Source: Legionella nautarum
GTDB taxonomy: Bacteria; Pseudomonadota; Gammaproteobacteria; Legionellales; Legionellaceae
Assembly: GCF_001467895.1 (NCBI RefSeq)
Contig: NZ_LNYO01000021.1
Span: forward strand, 1 to 64,000
DNA: 64,000 nt
Direction of reading: 5' to 3'
Below are positions 2,747-11,599 of this stretch, in pieces (position 1 is the first letter of the stretch; every line of letters starts with the position of its first letter). Made by a program: the position numbers and the translations under genes. The notes below the pieces were generated by a model, which made no database searches, had not been told where the DNA came from, and was given only the letters and a program-made list of their open reading frames with translations.

Positions 2747-5608
2747 CTACTTAGAAACAACTAGCCTTATGGCCTGAAGATTTACTGCAGAAAGATCAAT
2801 AAAACTCTCGCAATCTTCAAGTTGTTTTTGGAAAAATAGAATTTCTTCTTTGCGAATAGAGGGGTTAACTTGCTGTAAAGCTTGCAGCCTCTGAATCTCT
2901 GGTCTAATGGTTTCATGCATTAACTTTTTTGCATTCGCAAGAATTTCTGGTGCTTGCTCTTCGGCAATTTGACCGCTGTGAGCTAACATTTTCTCAATTT
3001 CATTGTGAACTTGTTTAATAATAGCTTGCCCCGTATGAAGCTTCAGCGGCTCACAGAGTTTGTTAAGTTGCTCATAGTTTAATATTTTTGACAAATTCTT
3101 ACCTGTCAGGTCAACTAATACTCTAATGGGAGAAACGGGTAAAAAGCGCTCAATTTGCAGTTGTTTAGGGGCAGCACAGTTCATTGTATAAAATGTTTCT
3201 AACAAGAGTGTCCCGGGTATCACACCTTTGAGGGATATTGAGCAGATCGTTGCATTACCCATCTCAGTGCCTACAATCATCTCCATGGATTCAGACACCA
3301 TGGGATGTTCCCAGCTTAAAAATTCCATCTCTTCACGGATTAAGGCTTTTGAACGCGAGTAAGTGACGGTCACTCCATCTTCTTTCAAACCTGGAAAATG
3401 AGTGGTTTTCATGTGATCGGTGGGGCGCAATATTTCGCAAGATTCTGAGTGATATTCATGCTCGATACCATATTCCTGAAAAACGGCAGCCATGTAATTT
3501 TCAAGTTCTAAGCCGGTTTCCTCAGCTTCAAGGTCGGCGATTAATTCTCTTGCGACAGGTTGTTTACAGGAGTTTAATTCTAATAAACGATCACGGCCCT
3601 CGTGCAGAGCCTCTGTAATTTGTTTTGTACGAGTTTTTGTATCAACGATGAGCTGGTTGAGAGTTTCTGGCTCTCCATCGGCTTGGACAAGAAGGGGCAG
3701 CAGTCGGTTTTCAAATTCTTCAAAAAGGGAAAAACCAACGGAGCAACTTTTCTCAAACAGGTTTATCCCTTCATGATACCAGCGAAAAAGCTTCTCTTGG
3801 GCGCTATTAAGCAGATAAGGGACATGAATTTCAATGTCATAGTATTGACCAATGCGGTCCAATCGACCAATTCGTTGTTCAAGTAAATCGGGATTGAGCG
3901 GTAAATCAAATAAAACCAGGTGATGGGCGAACTGAAAATTTCTTCCCTCGCTGCCTATCTCCGAGCAAATGAGCGTTTGTGCACCCTGTTCTTGTTCTGA
4001 AAAATACGCTGCTGCACGGTCGCGCTCTATAATGGATAAACCCTCATGAAAAGAGGCACTTCGTATACCGGCATTTAATTTTAAATGATTTTCTAAGCCA
4101 ATTGCCGTTTCCGCTTTGGCGCAAATAACTAATACTTTGTGAGGACGAAGTTCTACTAGTTTATCAACGAGCCAAGCCACGCGCGGATCGTTTTTTAGCC
4201 ATTCTACCTGATCAACCCTTGTTTCAGGATAGAGGTTAGATTCTAGTTCTGTTGTTGCAGAATAAATAGCTGTTTTTGGTAAAGCATAGGCTTGCAGTTT
4301 TCGTTGGGGGAAGCCATAAATTGCCGCTCGCGTATTGCGAAATAGAACACGACCAGTTCCATGTTGATCAATTAATTGATTAATAATCGTAGGGATGCTT
4401 AAAGAGTTATGATCCCCAAGATATTTTTTAACCTCCGCTGCTAATTCACTACTTAATTGATCAGTTTGATTTGTTTCCTGATAGCTCATTAGCCGCTGTA
4501 CTAATTTATTGAGCAACTGATAATTGCTTTCTTCTTTTTTGAATTCTCTAAAACTATAAAATCTTGCAGGATCAAGCAGACGCAAGCGTGCAAAATGACT
4601 TTGAATGCCGACTTGCTCAGGAGTCGCTGTGAGTAGCAACAAGCCTTTGCTTTGCGCCGCTAATTGTTCAATAAGCTTGTATTCAGGACTTACTGCTTCT
4701 TCTGACCAATGGAGATGATGGGCTTCATCGACGATTAAGAGATCCCAATTGGCGTCAATCGCATGCTGCTGTGCCTGTTCGTTTTCGAGCAGAAAATTTA
4801 AGCTACAGAGAACAAGCTGCTCGCTTTCAAAAAGATTGTCTTTGACCGTTTCTGTAATAATATCAAAATCTTCTTCAATCCTACTATCCTCATCCTCTTG
4901 TCGTTCGTAACGACTTTGATCCAAGATGGCAAAGCTTAAATTGAAACGCCGCAGCATCTCGACCAACCATTGGTGAATGAGGGTATTGGGAACCACAATA
5001 AGTATCCGAGTTGCGCGGCCAATTTGTTGTTGATAATGAATAATCATGCCTGCTTCGATTGTTTTACCCAGCCCCACCTCATCGGCAAGTAATACACGTG
5101 GTGCGTAGCGTTGGGCAACTTCATGAGCGATGTATACTTGGTGTGGTAAATGATTAGTGCGCGAACCTAATAGACCTCGTGCTTTCGATTGTTGCAGTCG
5201 GCTTAAGTGTGCTAAGGTATCTACGCGCAATTTGAATGAACTTAATTTATCGAATTGACCGCTAAAAAGCCGCTGCTCTGGTGTGGTTAATTTGATAAAA
5301 CAATCTAAATCGAGCTCTTCAATATCTATTTCTTGTCCAGTATCGTCAATGCCGGTATAGACCATAATCCCTTGATCTTCTGTCACTTTCGTGATTTTGA
5401 TTTGTTGTTGGTCTAAGGTAAAAATAGTATCGCCTTCGCGGTAAATAATTCGACTTAAAGGCGCGTTATCTGCTGCATAAATTCGTTCTTCAGCGGCAGC
5501 AGGGAAACTAAGGCAAATATGCCGGCCATTAACAGCTGTAATAATACCTAAGCCGAGTTGTGATTCGGCATTACTGATCCAACGTTGGCCAATAACGAAT
5601 ATCATCAA
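2747..5608 (-). CDS. rapA: RNA polymerase-associated protein RapA (SNF2-type ATPase)
   Basis: A 953-residue protein, close to the usual RapA length of about 960. The N-terminal part (residues 1-110) is the double Tudor-like region starting FVIGQRWISNAES. The SNF2 helicase core follows: Walker A in LLADEVGLGKTIEAG, Walker B/motif II DEAHHL, motif III LLTATP, then the C-terminal helicase lobe with GSEGRNFQFAHHLVLFD and QRIGRLDRIGQ. The rest is the RapA-specific C-terminal region. The protein binds core RNA polymerase and helps recycle it after transcription. Monocistronic; the next gene is divergent. Confidence 0.96.
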   Translation of the reverse strand: MMIFVIGQRWISNAESQLGLGIITAVNGRHICLSFPAAAEERIYAADNAPLSRIIYREGDTIFTLDQQQIKITKVTEDQGIMVYTGIDDTGQEIDIEELDLDCFIKLTTPEQRLFSGQFDKLSSFKLRVDTLAHLSRLQQSKARGLLGSRTNHLPHQVYIAHEVAQRYAPRVLLADEVGLGKTIEAGMIIHYQQQIGRATRILIVVPNTLIHQWLVEMLRRFNLSFAILDQSRYERQEDEDSRIEEDFDIITETVKDNLFESEQLVLCSLNFLLENEQAQQHAIDANWDLLIVDEAHHLHWSEEAVSPEYKLIEQLAAQSKGLLLLTATPEQVGIQSHFARLRLLDPARFYSFREFKKEESNYQLLNKLVQRLMSYQETNQTDQLSSELAAEVKKYLGDHNSLSIPTIINQLIDQHGTGRVLFRNTRAAIYGFPQRKLQAYALPKTAIYSATTELESNLYPETRVDQVEWLKNDPRVAWLVDKLVELRPHKVLVICAKAETAIGLENHLKLNAGIRSASFHEGLSIIERDRAAAYFSEQEQGAQTLICSEIGSEGRNFQFAHHLVLFDLPLNPDLLEQRIGRLDRIGQYYDIEIHVPYLLNSAQEKLFRWYHEGINLFEKSCSVGFSLFEEFENRLLPLLVQADGEPETLNQLIVDTKTRTKQITEALHEGRDRLLELNSCKQPVARELIADLEAEETGLELENYMAAVFQEYGIEHEYHSESCEILRPTDHMKTTHFPGLKEDGVTVTYSRSKALIREEMEFLSWEHPMVSESMEMIVGTEMGNATICSISLKGVIPGTLLLETFYTMNCAAPKQLQIERFLPVSPIRVLVDLTGKNLSKILNYEQLNKLCEPLKLHTGQAIIKQVHNEIEKMLAHSGQIAEEQAPEILANAKKLMHETIRPEIQRLQALQQVNPSIRKEEILFFQKQLEDCESFIDLSAVNLQAIRLVVSK

Positions 5609-5782: not shown

Positions 5783-6553
5783 ATGAGAATTTATCGTTTC
5801 GCGCTATTTTTGTTGTGTATTCTAATGTCTGTTCAAGCTCAAGCCAGAATATTGAAAGTGGGCGTCTCATTTTACGATCCTCCTTTTGTCATCTTGGGGG
5901 CAAATAACCAAGTCTATGGCTTCGATATCTCATTGATGGAACATGTGTGTAAGACCATGGGCTATGAATGCCAATTTAATCCGATGCCCTTTAATGAACT
6001 ACTTGATTCCGTAGAGTTGAATAAAATAGATTTTGCTATTAGCTCAATTATCATTACGCCAGAGCGAACAGCAAGAGTTAATTTTTCAGTACCTTATTTA
6101 GTCAGTAAAACTCGTTTTCTTGCAGTAAAACAGCCTGACGAAAAACCATTCACGCTGCAATCGTTGGCCAACAAAAAAATTGGTTTAGCGGATAAAGCTT
6201 TTGCTGAACAACTTAGGTTGCTGGGGCTTGGTGATTCACAATTTGTTGCTTTTACTCGCGATGATGCCCTAATACAAGCTTTGAATGACGGTAAGGTTGA
6301 TGTGGGTTTAATTGATAATCCTAGCGCAATTTATTGGCAAGAGCATTCATCCGGTGTTTTAGAAGCGAGAGGTAAGCCAATGGTTTATGGTCTTGGTTTG
6401 GGCATCGCCGTGAGCCCCGCTGACCAAAATCTCCTCCCCGCGCTGAATATGGCTATATTGGAATATCAAAATAGCGATGATTTTATTAATGATTATCACA
6501 AATACCTATCTCATTTGTCTCATGCAAAGGAAAATAATGTGGATTCGCCTTAA
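5783..6553 (+). CDS. Periplasmic solute-binding protein, family 3 (amino acid type)
   Basis: A 256-residue secreted protein with a Sec signal peptide (MRIYRFALFLLCILMSVQAQA) and the type-II periplasmic binding fold of polar amino acid receptors: GVSFYDPPFVI, YGFDISLMEHV, and DFAISSIIITPERTARVNFSVPY, the family signature. Homologues bind arginine, glutamine or similar ligands. No ABC permease or ATPase is beside it; instead its last 17 bases overlap the start of an MFS transporter, so the two are translationally coupled. It could be an orphan receptor. The ligand is not predictable here. Confidence 0.85.
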   Translation: MRIYRFALFLLCILMSVQAQARILKVGVSFYDPPFVILGANNQVYGFDISLMEHVCKTMGYECQFNPMPFNELLDSVELNKIDFAISSIIITPERTARVNFSVPYLVSKTRFLAVKQPDEKPFTLQSLANKKIGLADKAFAEQLRLLGLGDSQFVAFTRDDALIQALNDGKVDVGLIDNPSAIYWQEHSSGVLEARGKPMVYGLGLGIAVSPADQNLLPALNMAILEYQNSDDFINDYHKYLSHLSHAKENNVDSP

Positions 6554-7721
6554 GATTCCTGCAAATTTGATTGTTTTTTTGACGTTTGTAATGAATGCGT
6601 TATTAACGCAGTTATCACTCTATTTATATCTTCCCTCGATGCCGGCAATGAGAATTGCAATGCATACTAATAATGCTCACATTCAATTAACTTATTCTTA
6701 TTTTATGTTGGGTATGGGGTTAGCAATTATTTTTTCGGGATATTTGATTAGAAAAAGCAGCTATCGGCAATTACTACTGATCAATAATTTCATTTTTATC
6801 TTAGCGACGGCTTTAATTTTTTTCATTAATAATATATCAATTTTTTTAATTTTACGGGTGCTTCAAGGGATAGGTTGCTCTTTAGGATCCGTGTTTATAA
6901 TTATGGTTATTATCAGAGAGCAATATGAAAAGGAGGCGTCGATAAGAGTCTTTTCTTTTTTATTGTCGGCTTTGGCATTAGTACCAATTGTGGCTCCATT
7001 TATTGGCGGTTATATCCAAGATACTTATGGTTGGAAAGGTAATTTTCTCATTTTATTGTTTCTTTCTCTTGGACTCATGCTAACAACCTTTTTAATTTTT
7101 CCAAAAATCAAAAATAAAAGCAAAGAGCTGCAAAAATCCTATATTTTTTACATTAAAGAATACTTAAATGATAAGCATTTTTTTTCTCATACTGTCTATT
7201 CAATTCTGATAGTCAATATTATTGTTAGCTATAATGTGGCTAGTCCTTTTTTGTTGCAAAATCGTTTGGCAATTTCGGCATCTTTTTTTGGTTGGCTTGC
7301 AGCTTTTATTGGATGTATGTTCAGCTTAGGAGCGTTTTTTAACAGTAGCTTGATAAGAAAATATAATATCAATTTTGTAGTAAAATTTGGGTTAGTGATC
7401 AGTTCGATTGGAGTAGCTTTATTTTTAATTTGTAGTTATCTAACGCCCTATTCTGTAACTGCTATTGTAGTTCCTTTTGCTATTGTTACTTTTGGTTTAG
7501 CTATTTTGTACCCTAATTTAACGTCATATTCCTATGAAAATATAAAAGAACAGGCACATATTGCTGCTAGTTTATTTGCGACTTTAAATATTATTTCTAA
7601 TTTTATTACCGTTTATATTGTTGCTTTAATCCCTGAAGAATCGCCAATTTTTTTCGCCTGGGTAATTACCTCGATGCAACTGTTGCTATTAAGTTATTTT
7701 TATAAAAGAATAAAATTTTAG
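6537..7721 (+). CDS. MFS multidrug efflux transporter (Bcr/CflA-like)
   Basis: A polytopic protein of about 394 residues with roughly 12 membrane segments. The short motif RVLQGIGCSLGSVFIIMVII resembles the TM4-5 region of the drug:proton antiporter-1 group (Bcr/CflA), and LYLPSMPAM in the first loop is typical of Bcr relatives. ATG at 6537 has AAAGG upstream and overlaps the binding-protein gene; a start at 6477 would overlap it more and lacks such support. It ends two bases from the convergent peptide-modification operon, so it might export that operon's product. That link is inference from position only. Confidence 0.8.
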   Translation: MWIRLKIPANLIVFLTFVMNALLTQLSLYLYLPSMPAMRIAMHTNNAHIQLTYSYFMLGMGLAIIFSGYLIRKSSYRQLLLINNFIFILATALIFFINNISIFLILRVLQGIGCSLGSVFIIMVIIREQYEKEASIRVFSFLLSALALVPIVAPFIGGYIQDTYGWKGNFLILLFLSLGLMLTTFLIFPKIKNKSKELQKSYIFYIKEYLNDKHFFSHTVYSILIVNIIVSYNVASPFLLQNRLAISASFFGWLAAFIGCMFSLGAFFNSSLIRKYNINFVVKFGLVISSIGVALFLICSYLTPYSVTAIVVPFAIVTFGLAILYPNLTSYSYENIKEQAHIAASLFATLNIISNFITVYIVALIPEESPIFFAWVITSMQLLLLSYFYKRIKF

Positions 7722-7722
7722 G

Positions 7723-8427
7723 CTAAGTTGCTTTCTTTAAAATAACTTGCAACCAACCGGGCTCACATAAAGGTTTATTTTTAAATTTTGCTTTTAAATT
7801 TTCTAACTCCCACAGCAAAACATGATTTTCAGGCAATTGCTCAAGATAGGTTTTTTGGTCGTTCAGCCAATAATCGATCGTTGTTTCCATTAAACTTAAG
7901 CCATAATGAACGTCAATGGATGCAATATTTATTTTTTGGATTAAAGCAATAATTTCTCCGGAATTGAGGTATCTTCGATGATAGAAACCCAGCGCTTGAT
8001 GAAGTGATTTACACCAGCTGTCTAGCTCATGACCATACTGCTGAGATTTAATACTTCTGTCATACCAGAGTTCACTCGCAATCACGCCAAATTTAGCCAC
8101 TCGCAGGCATTCATTTAATGCTTTATTGGCATTGGGGATATGATGCAAGACATTGGCAATAATAACCCAATCAAATTGTTCATTCGAAAAAGGAAGTTCC
8201 CTAGCATCACCAACTTTTGCCTTAATTCCCTTACCTATTAATTTCTCAACATTTTCTGCGTGTTGATCAACGCCTATCACATCGATTTTCAAGTTTTCTT
8301 GACAGTATTTGATGACTTTTCCTTCACCACATCCTACATCCAATAAGGAACGGGGTTGTGGGGAAAATTGGCGAATGGTCTGAATGATTTCTCTTTCTTG
8401 CTGATTTATAGTCATTTTGAATGTCAT
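7723..8427 (-). CDS. Class I SAM-dependent methyltransferase of the peptide operon
   Basis: A 234-residue methyltransferase: motif I LLDVGCGEGKVIKYC (about residues 24-38), acidic GVDQHAENV, motif II KVGDARELPFSNEQFDWVI and motif III ANVLHHIPNANKALNEC. This is the Methyltransf_11/25 type that uses S-adenosylmethionine. Its ATG overlaps the stop of the upstream hydroxylase gene by 4 bases, so it is the last gene of a tightly coupled operon with two small precursor-like peptides. It probably methylates the peptide product, but small-molecule targets cannot be excluded. It is not of the protein L-isoaspartyl methyltransferase type. Confidence 0.85.
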   Translation of the reverse strand: MTFKMTINQQEREIIQTIRQFSPQPRSLLDVGCGEGKVIKYCQENLKIDVIGVDQHAENVEKLIGKGIKAKVGDARELPFSNEQFDWVIIANVLHHIPNANKALNECLRVAKFGVIASELWYDRSIKSQQYGHELDSWCKSLHQALGFYHRRYLNSGEIIALIQKINIASIDVHYGLSLMETTIDYWLNDQKTYLEQLPENHVLLWELENLKAKFKNKPLCEPGWLQVILKKAT

Positions 8428-9458
8428 TCCAATTGAGTTTTAAAATTCTTTGACATGTTATTAAACAATTTCCATCCTTGATCTGTAAGCTGAGCATGCT
8501 TTTTAATAATCATTTCGCCTTCTTTGAATTTATGCTGATAGGCAGAAAGACGAAGATTGAAATTCCAGGGCAATTCTTTAATTCGTATGTTATCAAAACA
8601 CTTGTCTTTTGATTCATGCTTTTTGTCAGTGGCATCAAAAAAAGCATAAGCTAATTTGTACATGAGTATCAGTCGATAAAACACAAAATGAGCATGAAAA
8701 ATACCCTTCATTGGCCGAGGGACTTTTCGGGCGGGCGAAATAAACATTTGATCGGGTTTATTTAAGACAATTGGATCTAAACCCATTAAAATATTGAGAT
8801 GCTGATGGGAGCCTTCATGGATAATTACATCAAAATAATAATAAACTGGATCAATGGATGGAGGGGGTATAGCAACGGGTAAGGCACCTAAGTATTTCAC
8901 GCTGGATGCGGAATAAATATTGAAAATTCCGTCCACTAATTCTATTAAATTCAGATGATCTCTAATTTCGGAATCCATATCCTTAGATGATAGTTTAATA
9001 TTTTCCAACGCCTGATAAATTTGGGATTTATTTAATTCAAAATCGGGCTCGCTAATACAATTGTAAACCCCCTGATGACCTTGATTTAAAATCTCATTGA
9101 CAAAATTTAGATCCCATTCTTTATTTCGAAAATTAATAATATTAAGCTCTGATGCATAAAGATCATCATTCGCTAAGCTCGTAGTTAAATTCTCACATAA
9201 TTTTCTGCAACTTTGTCTGTCGTTTTTGACCATAAAAGCCAATAATGAGTAGTAGTTAGAGTAAAGCCGAGATGAAAATTTTTTTGCAACCTTTAAATTA
9301 GTTATAAAATCGAGCTGCTGTTGAAAAGATTGATTTAAAACACGGGCACATTCTTGAATTAAAGTAATAAAACTAGCTTTGAGCTTCTCCCGAAAGAGCT
9401 GATGCAGTATTCCTGCACCAGCTTGATGCGGATTGGGTTCAACTAAATAGTTATCCAT
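8424..9458 (-). CDS. HExxH-type peptide beta-hydroxylase-like RiPP enzyme
   Basis: A 344-residue protein with H214-E215-x-x-H218 in the context IIHEGSHQHLNILMGLDPI and a downstream RPMKGIFHAHFVFYRLILM. Both match the HExxH putative peptide-modification family (TIGR04267 type, now described as alpha-ketoglutarate HExxH peptide beta-hydroxylases), whose members sit in RiPP clusters. By family knowledge it would hydroxylate side chains of a ribosomal peptide using iron and 2-oxoglutarate. It lies 20 bases after two twin small peptides and overlaps the methyltransferase by 4 bases. The N-terminal 170 residues are helical and may bind the leader. No signal peptide. The family call is by motif only. 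Confidence 0.8.
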   Translation of the reverse strand: MDNYLVEPNPHQAGAGILHQLFREKLKASFITLIQECARVLNQSFQQQLDFITNLKVAKKFSSRLYSNYYSLLAFMVKNDRQSCRKLCENLTTSLANDDLYASELNIINFRNKEWDLNFVNEILNQGHQGVYNCISEPDFELNKSQIYQALENIKLSSKDMDSEIRDHLNLIELVDGIFNIYSASSVKYLGALPVAIPPPSIDPVYYYFDVIIHEGSHQHLNILMGLDPIVLNKPDQMFISPARKVPRPMKGIFHAHFVFYRLILMYKLAYAFFDATDKKHESKDKCFDNIRIKELPWNFNLRLSAYQHKFKEGEMIIKKHAQLTDQGWKLFNNMSKNFKTQLE

Positions 9459-9478
9459 ATTTTAATTTAATGCCTACC

Positions 9479-9622
9479 TTAAGCAGGTGCTTGCACTGTT
9501 GCAATCAGATCAATGCCATCTAAAACGATATCAGTTGGAATTGAAAATTGCTCTTGAGCAATTGCTGAGTCCTCCTGATCTGATCGCTGGCATTCAATGA
9601 TTTCGTTAATAAAATTGTTCAT
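9479..9622 (-). CDS. Putative RiPP precursor peptide 2
   Basis: A 47-residue peptide beginning MNNFINEIIECQ and ending with SIPTDIVLDGIDLIATVQ plus APA. The start has a perfect AGGAGG seven bases upstream. It is 35/47 identical to the peptide encoded just upstream at 9650-9793, and nearly all changes are conservative, so both frames are under protein-level selection. It sits 20 bases before the HExxH enzyme. The likely arrangement is an N-terminal leader of about 25 residues and a C-terminal core rich in Asp, Ile and Val. Not similar to any peptide family I recognise. Confidence 0.8.
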   Translation of the reverse strand: MNNFINEIIECQRSDQEDSAIAQEQFSIPTDIVLDGIDLIATVQAPA

Positions 9623-9649
9623 ATTTAACCTCCTAGATCCACTACCACT

Positions 9650-9793
9650 TTAGGCAGCTGTTTGCACGGTTGCCACCAGATCTATGCCATCTATAACAAT
9701 ATCGGTTGGAATCGAAAATTGTTCGTGAGCTATCGTTGAATCCTCCTGATCTAACTGTTGGCATTCAATGACTTCGTTAACAAAATTATTCAT
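9650..9793 (-). CDS. Putative RiPP precursor peptide 1
   Basis: A 47-residue peptide beginning MNNFVNEVIECQ and ending with SIPTDIVIDGIDLVATVQ plus TAA, a tandem paralogue of the next gene. GGAG lies seven bases upstream of the ATG. The two peptides differ at residues 5, 8, 13, 14, 20, 23, 34, 40, 45, 46 and a few others, while FSIPTDIV, DGIDL and ATVQ are kept. It is the first gene of the operon, downstream of a -10-like TATAAT, with 27 bases between the two peptide genes. Its role as precursor is inferred from size, duplication and the adjacent modifying enzymes. Confidence 0.8.
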   Translation of the reverse strand: MNNFVNEVIECQQLDQEDSTIAHEQFSIPTDIVIDGIDLVATVQTAA

Positions 9794-9848
9794 CTTTAAA
9801 CTCCAAGAATGATCTTACTTGACCTTATTCTTAGAAATCCTTTGCTTA

Positions 9849-9854
9849 ATTATA
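9849..9854 (-). promoter_or_regulatory. -10 element for the peptide operon
   Basis: TATAAT on the minus strand, about 55 bases upstream of the first peptide start. The -35 region is weak, which would fit a promoter needing an activator such as the divergent LuxR-type regulator. The activator idea is inference. Confidence 0.4.
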
Positions 9855-9915
9855 ATACAATTTTCCTGTTTTTGCGGGTTCTCATAGTTATCAACTGTAG
9901 TTTGAGCCCTTAGAA

Positions 9916-9983: not shown

Positions 9984-10721
9984 ATGAAATCAGTAAAATT
10001 GGATGTTAGTAAACAGTTATCCCTATATCGAAGCAATCAAGGTATCAAATTAATTGGTGCAAAGCCTTACAAAAAAGAATCCTTTGATTTCGATATCCAG
10101 CATACGGTTGGAGATGTATTGCAATGGCCCTGCTCTGTTTATTTTGAAAATACAGAGGGAATCATTTATCAATTGAATGAATGCAATGCAGACTTCTGTG
10201 GTTTTGATTCTCCAAAACAGGCGATTGGTCAAAAGTATTTTGGGTTGCGGTTATCAAAAACAAGCGAAGCGATTCGTGATAATGATAAAGCAGTCATGCA
10301 ATCTGCTAAGCGCAAAGTGTTTGACGAAGAAATTTGTGATGAGCATGAAGGGGTTTTGCGGACTCTTTCCATTAAATGCCCTTGGTTTAATCTAGAAAAT
10401 AAACTGATAGGTCTATTTGGTTGTTCCATTGTAGTAGGAGAAAATCCACTTGCCGAAACACTTTCAATACTGATGAAAATTGGTTTGTTAGCCAATGAGG
10501 AGAATGCCTATTATTCAACCCATTTAAATCTAACTTATCGACAAAGGCAGTGTGCGCAGCTTTTAGTTCAGGGTCAAACGGCTAAAGAAATCGCCAAACA
10601 AATTAATTTATCTTATCGAACAATAGAGCATTACATCGAAAATCTTAAAACGAAATTGCATTGCCAGAATAAGACAGAATTAATTATTAAGCTAAACGAT
10701 CTTCTAAGAAAAAAACCTTAA
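9984..10721 (+). CDS. PAS-LuxR type transcriptional regulator
   Basis: A 245-residue protein with a PAS-like sensory region (about residues 40-150: [20 protein letters not shown], then IGQKYFGL and [14 protein letters not shown]) and a C-terminal LuxR/GerE helix-turn-helix ([20 protein letters not shown], then [19 protein letters not shown]). It lacks an acyl-homoserine-lactone binding domain. It is divergent from the twin-peptide operon across a 190-base promoter region and so is the obvious candidate for its regulator. The PAS ligand is unknown. Confidence 0.85.
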
Positions 10722-10735
10722 TAATCATTGAAACA

Positions 10736-10809
10736 TATAGGGTATTAATACGGTATTTATGGATTTTTTTTTACCCTATAGTGTCAGATATTTGATTCAA
10801 TTAGGGTAA
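10736..10809 (+). promoter_or_regulatory. queF leader with mutually exclusive hairpins
   Basis: Three segments: TATAGGGTA (10736-10744), TTACCCTATA (10771-10780) and TAGGGTAA (10802-10809). The middle one is perfectly complementary to the first (9 pairs) and to the last (8 pairs). The last segment contains the AGGG ribosome binding site seven bases before the queF ATG. This geometry could switch translation of a preQ1-pathway gene. It does not look like preQ1-I as I know it. Whether the first segment is transcribed is not certain. Confidence 0.45.
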
Positions 10810-10813
10810 TACT

Positions 10814-11599
10814 ATGAAAGAGGAAAACGATTCTTTATTAGGCAAAAGTACAGTCTATGAACCTTATTATAATCCTGAACAATTATTTTCTATTTCAAGG
10901 AGAGCACAGCGCGAAGAACTTGGTATCTCATCGACCCCGCCTTTCTTTGGATGTGATAAGTGGAACCATTATGAACTGTCCTGGTTAAATGAAAAGGGAA
11001 AACCTATTTTTGCCCTAGCAGAAATTATTTATTCTTGTCACTCTCCTTTTCTCATTGAATCTAAGTCATTGAAACTTTATTTTAATTCTTTCAATAATAC
11101 AAAATTTGCTAGTTCAGAGGCAGTGCAACGTCAAATAATAAATGATCTTGAGAAAAAAATAGCGGCTAAAGTTATTGTTAAAATTAATCCATTTCATGGA
11201 GAAGAAATTCAGCCTTTTGAAGGTATATGCCTCGACGAATTGGATGTGGCTTGCTCAATTTACACTGTTGATCCTTTGTTGTTAACGGTGGAGAAAGCGC
11301 TGGTTAAGGAGCAGCTCTATTCCAATTTACTCAAATCAAATTGCCTAGTTACCAACCAACCTGATTGGGCTAGTGTGCAGATTATTTATTCAGGAAAAAA
11401 GATAAATCATGCTGGATTGTTGCGCTATTTAGTTTCCTTTCGCAATCACAATGAATTTGCTGAGCATTGTATAGAAAGAATCTTCATGGATATTATGCGT
11501 TTTTGTAAACCCGAAGAATTGACTGTTTTCGGACGCTATTCGCGAAGAGGGGGCTTAGCCATCAATCCTTTACGCACGACAAAAAAGAGCTATTATTAG
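10814..11599 (+). CDS. queF: NADPH-dependent 7-cyano-7-deazaguanine reductase QueF
   Basis: A 261-residue bimodular (E. coli-length) QueF. It reduces the nitrile preQ0 to the amine preQ1 in queuosine tRNA modification. Family landmarks are visible: LGKSTVYEPYYNP near the N-terminus, YELSWLNEKGKP, the NADPH-binding motif ESKSLKLYFNSFNNTKF, KSNCLVTNQPDW with the Cys that forms the thioimide, and LRYLVSFRNHNEFAEHCIER with the conserved Glu and His. ATG has AGGG seven bases upstream. The leader at 10736-10809 may control translation. Its gene neighbour lldD is convergent and unrelated. Confidence 0.95.
   Translation: MKEENDSLLGKSTVYEPYYNPEQLFSISRRAQREELGISSTPPFFGCDKWNHYELSWLNEKGKPIFALAEIIYSCHSPFLIESKSLKLYFNSFNNTKFASSEAVQRQIINDLEKKIAAKVIVKINPFHGEEIQPFEGICLDELDVACSIYTVDPLLLTVEKALVKEQLYSNLLKSNCLVTNQPDWASVQIIYSGKKINHAGLLRYLVSFRNHNEFAEHCIERIFMDIMRFCKPEELTVFGRYSRRGGLAINPLRTTKKSYY

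What the first reader, a model, noticed from the sequence alone, without database searches (positions are those of the whole stretch)
7723..9793. A compact, apparently undescribed RiPP-like operon
Four minus-strand genes in one coupled unit: two twin 47-residue peptides, a HExxH-type peptide hydroxylase-like enzyme and a SAM methyltransferase. Gaps are 27, 20 and -4 bases. The HExxH family is known from RiPP loci of other bacteria, often with a radical SAM partner, which is missing here. Predicted product: a short peptide hydroxylated and methylated at one or more side chains.
Basis: partly seen in the sequence, partly recalled or inferred. Interest (0 to 1): 0.9.

Follow-up and report, generated by a model that had tools for sequence, protein, structure and literature searches.

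The report
Small peptide-tailoring gene cassette in Legionella
A Legionella-type genome carries a compact set of genes that makes two short peptides, most likely hydroxylates and methylates them and exports the product; the same core set recurs in related and in more distant bacteria, so it looks like a small, apparently unreported peptide natural-product pathway.

Summary
In detail: two 47-residue peptide genes, an aKG-HExxH-type enzyme and a class I methyltransferase lie on one strand with gaps of 27, 20 and -4 bases. TIGR04267 matches at 54.1 bits, cut-off 40. The peptide frame is conserved beside homologous enzymes: six peptides in five genomes (window, L. drozanskii, two of another Legionellaceae genus, one gammaproteobacterium of another family) share the C-terminal motif F-x-[ILV]-P-x3-V-x-D-G-[AI]-D-x2-[PA]-T-V-Q-x3-COOH. 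In Legionellaceae, this peptide, this methyltransferase and this HExxH subtype occur in the same 4 of 143 genomes. The methyltransferase adjoins HExxH in 5 of 31 HExxH loci scanned. Best reading: a two-enzyme RiPP pathway. Reaction sites, methyl acceptor, protease and bioactivity are inferred or unknown; the fold comparison could not be run. New variant of a known kind.

The parts
9650..9793 (-). precursor peptide copy 1 (47 aa, ends TVQTAA)
   Evidence: codon-position pattern; tandem copy
9479..9622 (-). precursor peptide copy 2 (47 aa, ends TVQAPA)
   Evidence: dN 0.042, dS 0.58 vs drozanskii; tandem copy
9662..9718 (-). conserved C-terminal motif (F26 to Q44) of copy 1
   Evidence: nine columns invariant in 6 of 6 peptides
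9491..9547 (-). conserved C-terminal motif (F26 to Q44) of copy 2
   Evidence: nine columns invariant in 6 of 6 peptides
8424..9458 (-). aKG-HExxH-type peptide hydroxylase-like enzyme, 344 aa
   Evidence: TIGR04267 54.1 bits, cut-off 40; ChlH 8s5f
8805..8819 (-). HEGSH (HExxH) motif, residues 214-218
   Evidence: H214, E215, H218 invariant in 21 of 21 aligned enzymes
8694..8717 (-). R248-P249..H255 segment, second family signature
   Evidence: R248, P249 invariant, H255 in at least 90% of 21; aligned with the same segment of ChlH
7723..8427 (-). class I SAM methyltransferase, 234 aa, overlaps the enzyme by 4 bases
   Evidence: Methyltransf_11 68.5 bits; nearest PDB chain LahSB 6uak, SAM-binding part only
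6477..7721 (+). MFS transporter, nearest to Bcr/CflA type, convergent with the methyltransferase, 1 base between the stops; probable exporter
   Evidence: MFS_1 116 bits; TIGR00710 169 bits, under its cut-off of 200.9; homologues (36-88% identity) adjoin the cassette in 4 of 4 Legionellaceae carriers
9828..9864 (-). 37-base block upstream of the first peptide, identical in L. drozanskii, holds TATAAT (9849-9854): possible promoter region
   Evidence: two-sequence alignment; the consensus scanner did not report this site

Best explanation
The locus is a compact RiPP biosynthetic cassette. The two 47-residue peptides are precursors. The aKG-HExxH enzyme binds them and hydroxylates one or more residues, most likely in the conserved C-terminal stretch (candidates: the invariant Asp35, Asp38, Gln44 and Pro29). 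The class I methyltransferase, whose frame overlaps the enzyme's, then methylates the same peptide, with the C-terminal carboxylate as the first candidate acceptor. An MFS protein exports the product. Shown here: the genes, their order, the conservation of the peptide motif, the family of each enzyme, and their co-occurrence. Inferred from families: hydroxylation, methylation of the peptide, export. Unknown: which residues, which protease trims the peptide, and what the product does.
For: TIGR04267 over its cut-off in the enzymes of all five carriers: window, G005, G124, G126, G810. Family profile vs ChlH E 4.2e-17. Characterised members hydroxylate RiPP precursors: PflC/PosC (PMC12636437, parts 1-4 of 6 read), PesO (PMC13060819, part 1 and passages), and ChlH-type enzymes as cited there. 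The peptide profile, built from the Legionellaceae carriers, hits strongly in none of the other 139 family genomes, nor does the methyltransferase profile at 1e-20, and the HExxH profile falls from 600 to 129 bits outside the four. G124, G126 and G810 were found through their HExxH enzymes, and the peptide and methyltransferase were then seen beside them. Peptide gene upstream of the enzyme, 20 to 66 bases away, in all five. HExxH and methyltransferase frames overlap in all five. The four Legionellaceae cassette enzymes group together in the tree, 94/94, just under the starred level. Purifying selection on the peptides.
Against: No protease gene in the cassette, no leader-binding domain recognised by Pfam in the enzyme, no double-Gly leader. 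The most conserved part of the peptide is its C-terminus, whereas in many RiPPs the leader is conserved and the core varies (recalled). The methyltransferase matches well only in its SAM-binding part; its acceptor cannot be read from sequence. The two genes behind the cassette in G810 are not transporters and the cassette MFS profile finds none in that locus. No product is known.
Confidence: 0.77

Rival explanations
1. The HExxH protein is a zinc peptidase that trims or destroys the peptides; no hydroxylation takes place.
For: HExxH is the classic zincin motif. PflC of the same family hydrolyses its peptide when the leader is missing (PMC12636437). No other protease is in the cassette.
Against: The segment R-x3-RP-x2-G-x2-HA-x-FV is kept in the cassette enzymes and aligned with ChlH. 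The curated hydroxylase model is passed; no peptidase model was listed for it.
Confidence: 0.1
2. The peptides are small regulatory or antitoxin-like proteins whose modification is a control switch, and the cassette is not a natural-product pathway.
For: Purifying selection and a constant C-terminal motif; no biosynthetic accessory gene other than a transporter recognised in the Legionellaceae cassettes.
Against: Duplicated precursor genes with differing tails (TAA, APA; YLM in G810), an adjoining MFS transporter, and ligase-like and dehydrogenase-like genes behind the G810 cassette fit a biosynthetic role better.
Confidence: 0.1
3. Only peptide and HExxH enzyme belong together; the methyltransferase and MFS are chance neighbours.
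For: 26 of 31 HExxH loci scanned have no such methyltransferase at E 1e-4, though several are cut by contig ends. The MFS is on the opposite strand in the window.
Against: Overlapping frames in five genomes of two families, and no methyltransferase orthologue in the other 139 Legionellaceae genomes at E 1e-20. MFS adjacency is kept in both orientations.
Confidence: 0.04

Closest known systems
aKG-HExxH peptide beta-hydroxylases, TIGR04267/IPR026337 (ChlH, BpmH/BipH, PflC/PosC, PesO)
   Same: Curated model passed; signature segments kept; short precursor gene upstream
   Different: In the characterised clusters that I read about the partners are a fused radical SAM domain, MNIO, nitroreductase, GNAT or asparagine-synthetase-like proteins; here the partner is a class I methyltransferase
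pfl/pos cluster of Pseudomonas (PflA/PosA, PMC12636437)
   Same: HExxH enzyme with a precursor; Gln near the C-terminus followed by a short tail; no protease in the cluster; transporter genes
   Different: Precursors there are longer (PosA reaches residue 94), with nitrile-hydratase-like leaders and a Gln run before ARMD; here 45-49 aa with TVQ-x3; no MNIO-nitroreductase, a methyltransferase instead
LahSB, C-terminal carboxyl methyltransferase of a lanthipeptide pathway (PDB 6uak; PMC11285071, passages)
   Same: Best PDB match of the methyltransferase profile (E 3.4e-11); class I; acts on RiPP precursors
   Different: Match covers profile positions 39-132 only (SAM-binding part), 46.3 bits against 42.3 for a glucose O-methyltransferase, so the acceptor is not shown
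Other Legionellaceae HExxH loci (G002, G111, G125, second copy of G126, G128, G129, G130)
   Same: Short peptide gene directly before an HExxH enzyme
   Different: No such methyltransferase or cassette MFS; peptides not shown to be related (profile comparison 0.8% probability)

Membership tests
aKG-HExxH peptide hydroxylase (TIGR04267) | score over curated cut-off | tested here: met
   54.1 bits vs 40; the matched stretch is residues 205-266 only
aKG-HExxH peptide hydroxylase (TIGR04267) | HExxH and the Arg-Pro...His-Ala-x-Phe-Val segment | tested here: met
   alignment with ChlH
aKG-HExxH peptide hydroxylase (TIGR04267) | fold of ChlH | not tested
aKG-HExxH peptide hydroxylase (TIGR04267) | Fe(II)/aKG-dependent hydroxylation of a precursor peptide | not testable with these tools
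   needs mass spectrometry
RiPP biosynthetic gene cluster | genetically encoded short precursor beside its modifying enzyme, conserved across genomes | tested here: met
RiPP biosynthetic gene cluster | post-translational modification of the precursor | not testable with these tools
   no mass data
RiPP biosynthetic gene cluster | leader/follower removal by a protease in the cluster (usual, not obligatory) | tested here: not met
   no protease among the cassette genes; the pfl cluster also lacks one (PMC12636437)
PAMT/pamtide methyltransferase (aspartyl O-methyltransferase) | PIMT-type (PCMT) domain | tested here: not met
   no PCMT model among the 17 Pfam matches, despite the invariant Asp-Gly in the peptides
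LahSB-type C-terminal carboxyl methyltransferase | homology beyond the SAM-binding part | tested here: inconclusive
   match limited to positions 39-132; AlphaFold model weak, mean pLDDT 57.5

The most novel reading that the evidence does not exclude
The peptide is a carrier whose C-terminal end is the business part. The HExxH enzyme hydroxylates around the invariant D-G-x-D-x3-T-V-Q and, as PosC does after its Gln run, cleaves oxidatively at the residue after the invariant Gln; the methyltransferase caps an acid group; a small modified fragment or C-terminally amidated peptide is the product. In Legionellaceae it is exported by the MFS protein; in G810 it is further built up by the ATP-grasp protein (resembling dapdiamide synthase, under that model's cut-off) and an alanine-dehydrogenase-like protein behind the cassette. 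This would be a new class of RiPP (HExxH plus class I methyltransferase as the core).
Probability: 0.12. Interest if true: 0.8.

Novelty: new variant of a known kind. Interest (0 to 1): 0.58.

Why it matters
aKG-HExxH enzymes have only recently been shown to be peptide hydroxylases, and PMC13060819 (passage) says that their reactions cannot at present be predicted. Here is a minimal two-enzyme setting with very short precursors, a sharply defined 19-residue motif and natural variants of the last three residues (APA, TAA, YLM). It offers a small system in which the substrate rules of both enzymes could be read off. It also points to a specialised peptide product in Legionellaceae, about whose function I found nothing.

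Tried and rejected
Divergent LuxR-type gene (9984-10721) as dedicated regulator: weakened, not excluded. A close orthologue in the genus (22 genomes) is only in G005 (81%), but eight other genomes have homologues of 30-38% identity at 1e-20, and in 4 of those 8 (G001, G004, G007, G013) one lies beside a second queF copy, as in the window; in G013 it is the third-best of three.

Homology of the cassette peptides with the FFxxIP...PTM peptides of other Legionellaceae: not supported (probability 0.8%, E 0.07).

Spread by plasmids or phages: no carrier found. HExxH in plasmids: 3 of 72,556 records, at most 29% identity, without this methyltransferase; the methyltransferase in plasmids: 51 records, none covering 80% of it, of those listed at most 37% identity; peptide in plasmids none; G810 enzyme in plasmids none; HExxH in phages none; in viral contigs none.

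Two marginal peptide hits (G054, G135, E 0.08 and 0.09, partial) were treated as chance. Aspartimide chemistry at Asp-Gly by a PIMT: considered, no PCMT domain. Promoter and terminator scan: 7 against 10.2 expected and 0 against 1.3. The methyltransferase model is too weak to use. A literature search on dapdiamide-type ligases in RiPPs gave no paper.

Full report
WHAT IS THERE. The best named relative at this locus is L. drozanskii LLAP-1 (78% enzyme identity); genome G005, of the same genus as the window's, has the same match and contig length, so I take G005 to be it and the window to be of Legionella type. On the minus strand, two 47-residue frames (9650-9793, 9479-9622) are followed by a 344-residue HExxH protein (8424-9458) and a 234-residue methyltransferase (7723-8427), with gaps of 27, 20 and -4 bases. 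The peptide units are tandem copies, 162 nt at 83%, period 171. Upstream, a 37-base block with TATAAT is identical to L. drozanskii; the generic promoter scan was uninformative.

THE PEPTIDES LOOK LIKE GENES. Substitutions by codon position: 7/2/15 between the copies (dN 0.10, dS 0.68), 3/2/11 for copy 2 against L. drozanskii (dN 0.042, dS 0.58), 8/1/10 for copy 1 against L. drozanskii (dN 0.10, dS 0.38), 1/2/16 for G124 against G126. The enzymes evolve alike: HExxH dN 0.12, dS 0.46; methyltransferase dN 0.067, dS 0.49.

THE ENZYMES. The HExxH protein passes TIGR04267, aKG-HExxH-type peptide beta-hydroxylase, at 54.1 bits against a cut-off of 40, over residues 205-266; no Pfam family reaches its cut-off. 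A profile of 21 homologues finds ChlH (8s5f) at E 4.2e-17 and a radical-SAM-domain protein (22nu) at 3.3e-10 in the PDB. H214, E215, H218, R248, P249, F258, V259 and R262 are invariant in the 21; H255 is nearly so. In 22nu the position of H255 is a Gln, so I do not claim it as a metal ligand. The methyltransferase is class I (Methyltransf_11); its profile's best PDB match is LahSB, but only over the SAM-binding part and with a margin of 4 bits over a sugar O-methyltransferase. That LahSB methylates precursor C-termini is from passages of PMC11285071.

DISTRIBUTION. TIGR04267 is found in 17 of 143 Legionellaceae genomes at E 0.001, in 12 over the cut-off. The peptide profile hits at E 5.2e-25 or lower in 4 of 143: G000, G005, G124, G126; two others are marginal. 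The methyltransferase profile hits at E 1e-20 in the same 4 of 143. The cassette HExxH subtype scores 600 bits or more in the same 4, the next being 129 bits (the order search held the same 143 genomes). These profiles were built from the four carriers, so the information lies in the absence elsewhere. In a draw of 369 class genomes the window's HExxH matched 7 (own included) at E 0.001, and the methyltransferase at 1e-35 only its own, with at most 7 candidates scored in the rows shown. In a draw of 398 phylum genomes the HExxH profile matched 5 (own included) at 1e-12, of which G810, of another family of the class, at 193 bits. Its locus (57% GC) again has peptide, HExxH and methyltransferase, at 28% (HExxH) and 37% (methyltransferase) identity to the window.

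THE MOTIF. Across the six peptides nine columns are invariant: F26, P29, V33, D35, G36, D38, T42, V43, Q44, and exactly three residues follow Q44 (TAA, APA, APA, APA, APA, YLM). The N-terminal part is hardly alike between the families (G810 has 3 and 2 identities in the first 20 residues with copy 2 and G124, against 11 and 11 in the last 22). So the conserved part is the C-terminus. Whether it is the modified core or a recognition element (a follower) cannot be told from sequence.

THE CASSETTE. I scanned 32 loci (the first 20 kb of the window, L031-L057, L085-L088); 31 hold an HExxH frame (none in L047; L039 has a short one). The methyltransferase occurs in 5, always overlapping the HExxH frame, and nowhere else at E 1e-4. 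Several loci are cut by contig ends (L033, L041, L046, L050 among others), so absences there are weaker. With the listed starts the overlap is 4 bases in the window and L. drozanskii, 8 in G810, and 56 and 71 in G124 and G126, where a start further in is likely. An MFS transporter (36-88% identity among the four) lies directly behind the methyltransferase in the same direction in G124 and G126, and convergent with it in the window and L. drozanskii. In the genus, 15 of 22 genomes have some match to it at 1e-20, but a close one (88%) only G005; the others are at 30% or less. Adjacency kept in both orientations argues for a functional link, so I add it to the unit. In G810 the two genes behind the methyltransferase are an ATP-grasp protein (dapdiamide A synthase model 232 bits, cut-off 840) and one with an AlaDh_PNT_N domain; the cassette MFS profile finds nothing there. 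The HExxH tree (21 rows) groups the four Legionellaceae cassette enzymes, 94/94, just under the starred level; G810 was not in that tree.

HOW IT MOST LIKELY WORKS. Peptides are made; the HExxH enzyme hydroxylates residues of the conserved stretch; the methyltransferase methylates the same peptide; the MFS protein exports it. Known members hydroxylate His, Asp, Phe, Gln and Pro (PMC13060819); Asp35, Asp38, Gln44 and Pro29 are therefore candidates. PosC also cleaves the backbone oxidatively at an Ala after Gln; copy 2 and three other peptides have Gln-Ala, copy 1 Gln-Thr and G810 Gln-Tyr, so cleavage would be expected of some and not of others. This is inference by analogy.

AGAINST. No protease in the cassette; the conserved region is the C-terminus; the methyl acceptor is unknown; the fold comparison could not be run; the methyltransferase model is poor (mean pLDDT 57.5).

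LITERATURE. Searches for HExxH with hydroxylase, RiPP, methyltransferase, Legionella and for the model names listed no report, as far as titles and the abstract beginnings shown tell, of an HExxH-methyltransferase RiPP or of this locus. Read: PMC12636437 parts 1-4 of 6; PMC13060819 part 1 of 7 and passages; passages of PMC12452194, PMC11285071, PMC12257519, PMC12707348, PMC7726476; outline and abstract of PMC10787088; the rest as search listings. Supplements and most subscription papers (including the ChlH paper) were not seen, and a published similarity network of the family may include these proteins without comment.

VERDICT. The chemistry is unproven.

Noticed in passing
window 9984-11599 (+): A LuxR-type gene and a second queF copy; in 4 of 8 other genomes of the genus with a LuxR homologue at 1e-20 (G001, G004, G007, G013) one such homologue also lies beside a second queF copy, suggesting a LuxR-queF2 pair.
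   Followed up: partly
window 5783-6553 (+): Amino-acid-type periplasmic binding protein (SBP_bac_3) directly before the MFS gene; kept in L. drozanskii; not evident beside the cassette in G124/G126 from ORF lists, which were not annotated.
   Followed up: no
window 6477-7721: The MFS gene has 30% GC against 36% for the cassette and 39% for the window.
   Followed up: no
L031, L032, L034-L038: Second type of Legionellaceae HExxH locus: peptides of about 57-69 residues with FFxxIP/LP...PTM and an acidic stretch, ending within 8 bases of the enzyme start, no such methyltransferase.
   Followed up: partly
L043, L044, L046: Third Legionellaceae type: HExxH gene directly after a permease-like frame (by eye), no clear peptide gene found.
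   Followed up: no
L051 about 5057-5392; also L048, L049, L052, L053: HExxH loci of other gammaproteobacteria have upstream peptides with [KN]-L-[LY]-G near the start; in L051 GAKIGKA occurs three times, suggesting a multi-core precursor (by eye).
   Followed up: no
L055, L056 (Xenorhabdus and Pantoea plasmids): Plasmid-borne HExxH gene followed by an MFS transporter, in Xenorhabdus with a carboxymuconolactone decarboxylase family gene between.
   Followed up: no
L085 4591-7043 (-): ATP-grasp and AlaDh_PNT_N proteins follow the cassette in G810, the first 34 bases behind the methyltransferase; may point to further tailoring.
   Followed up: partly
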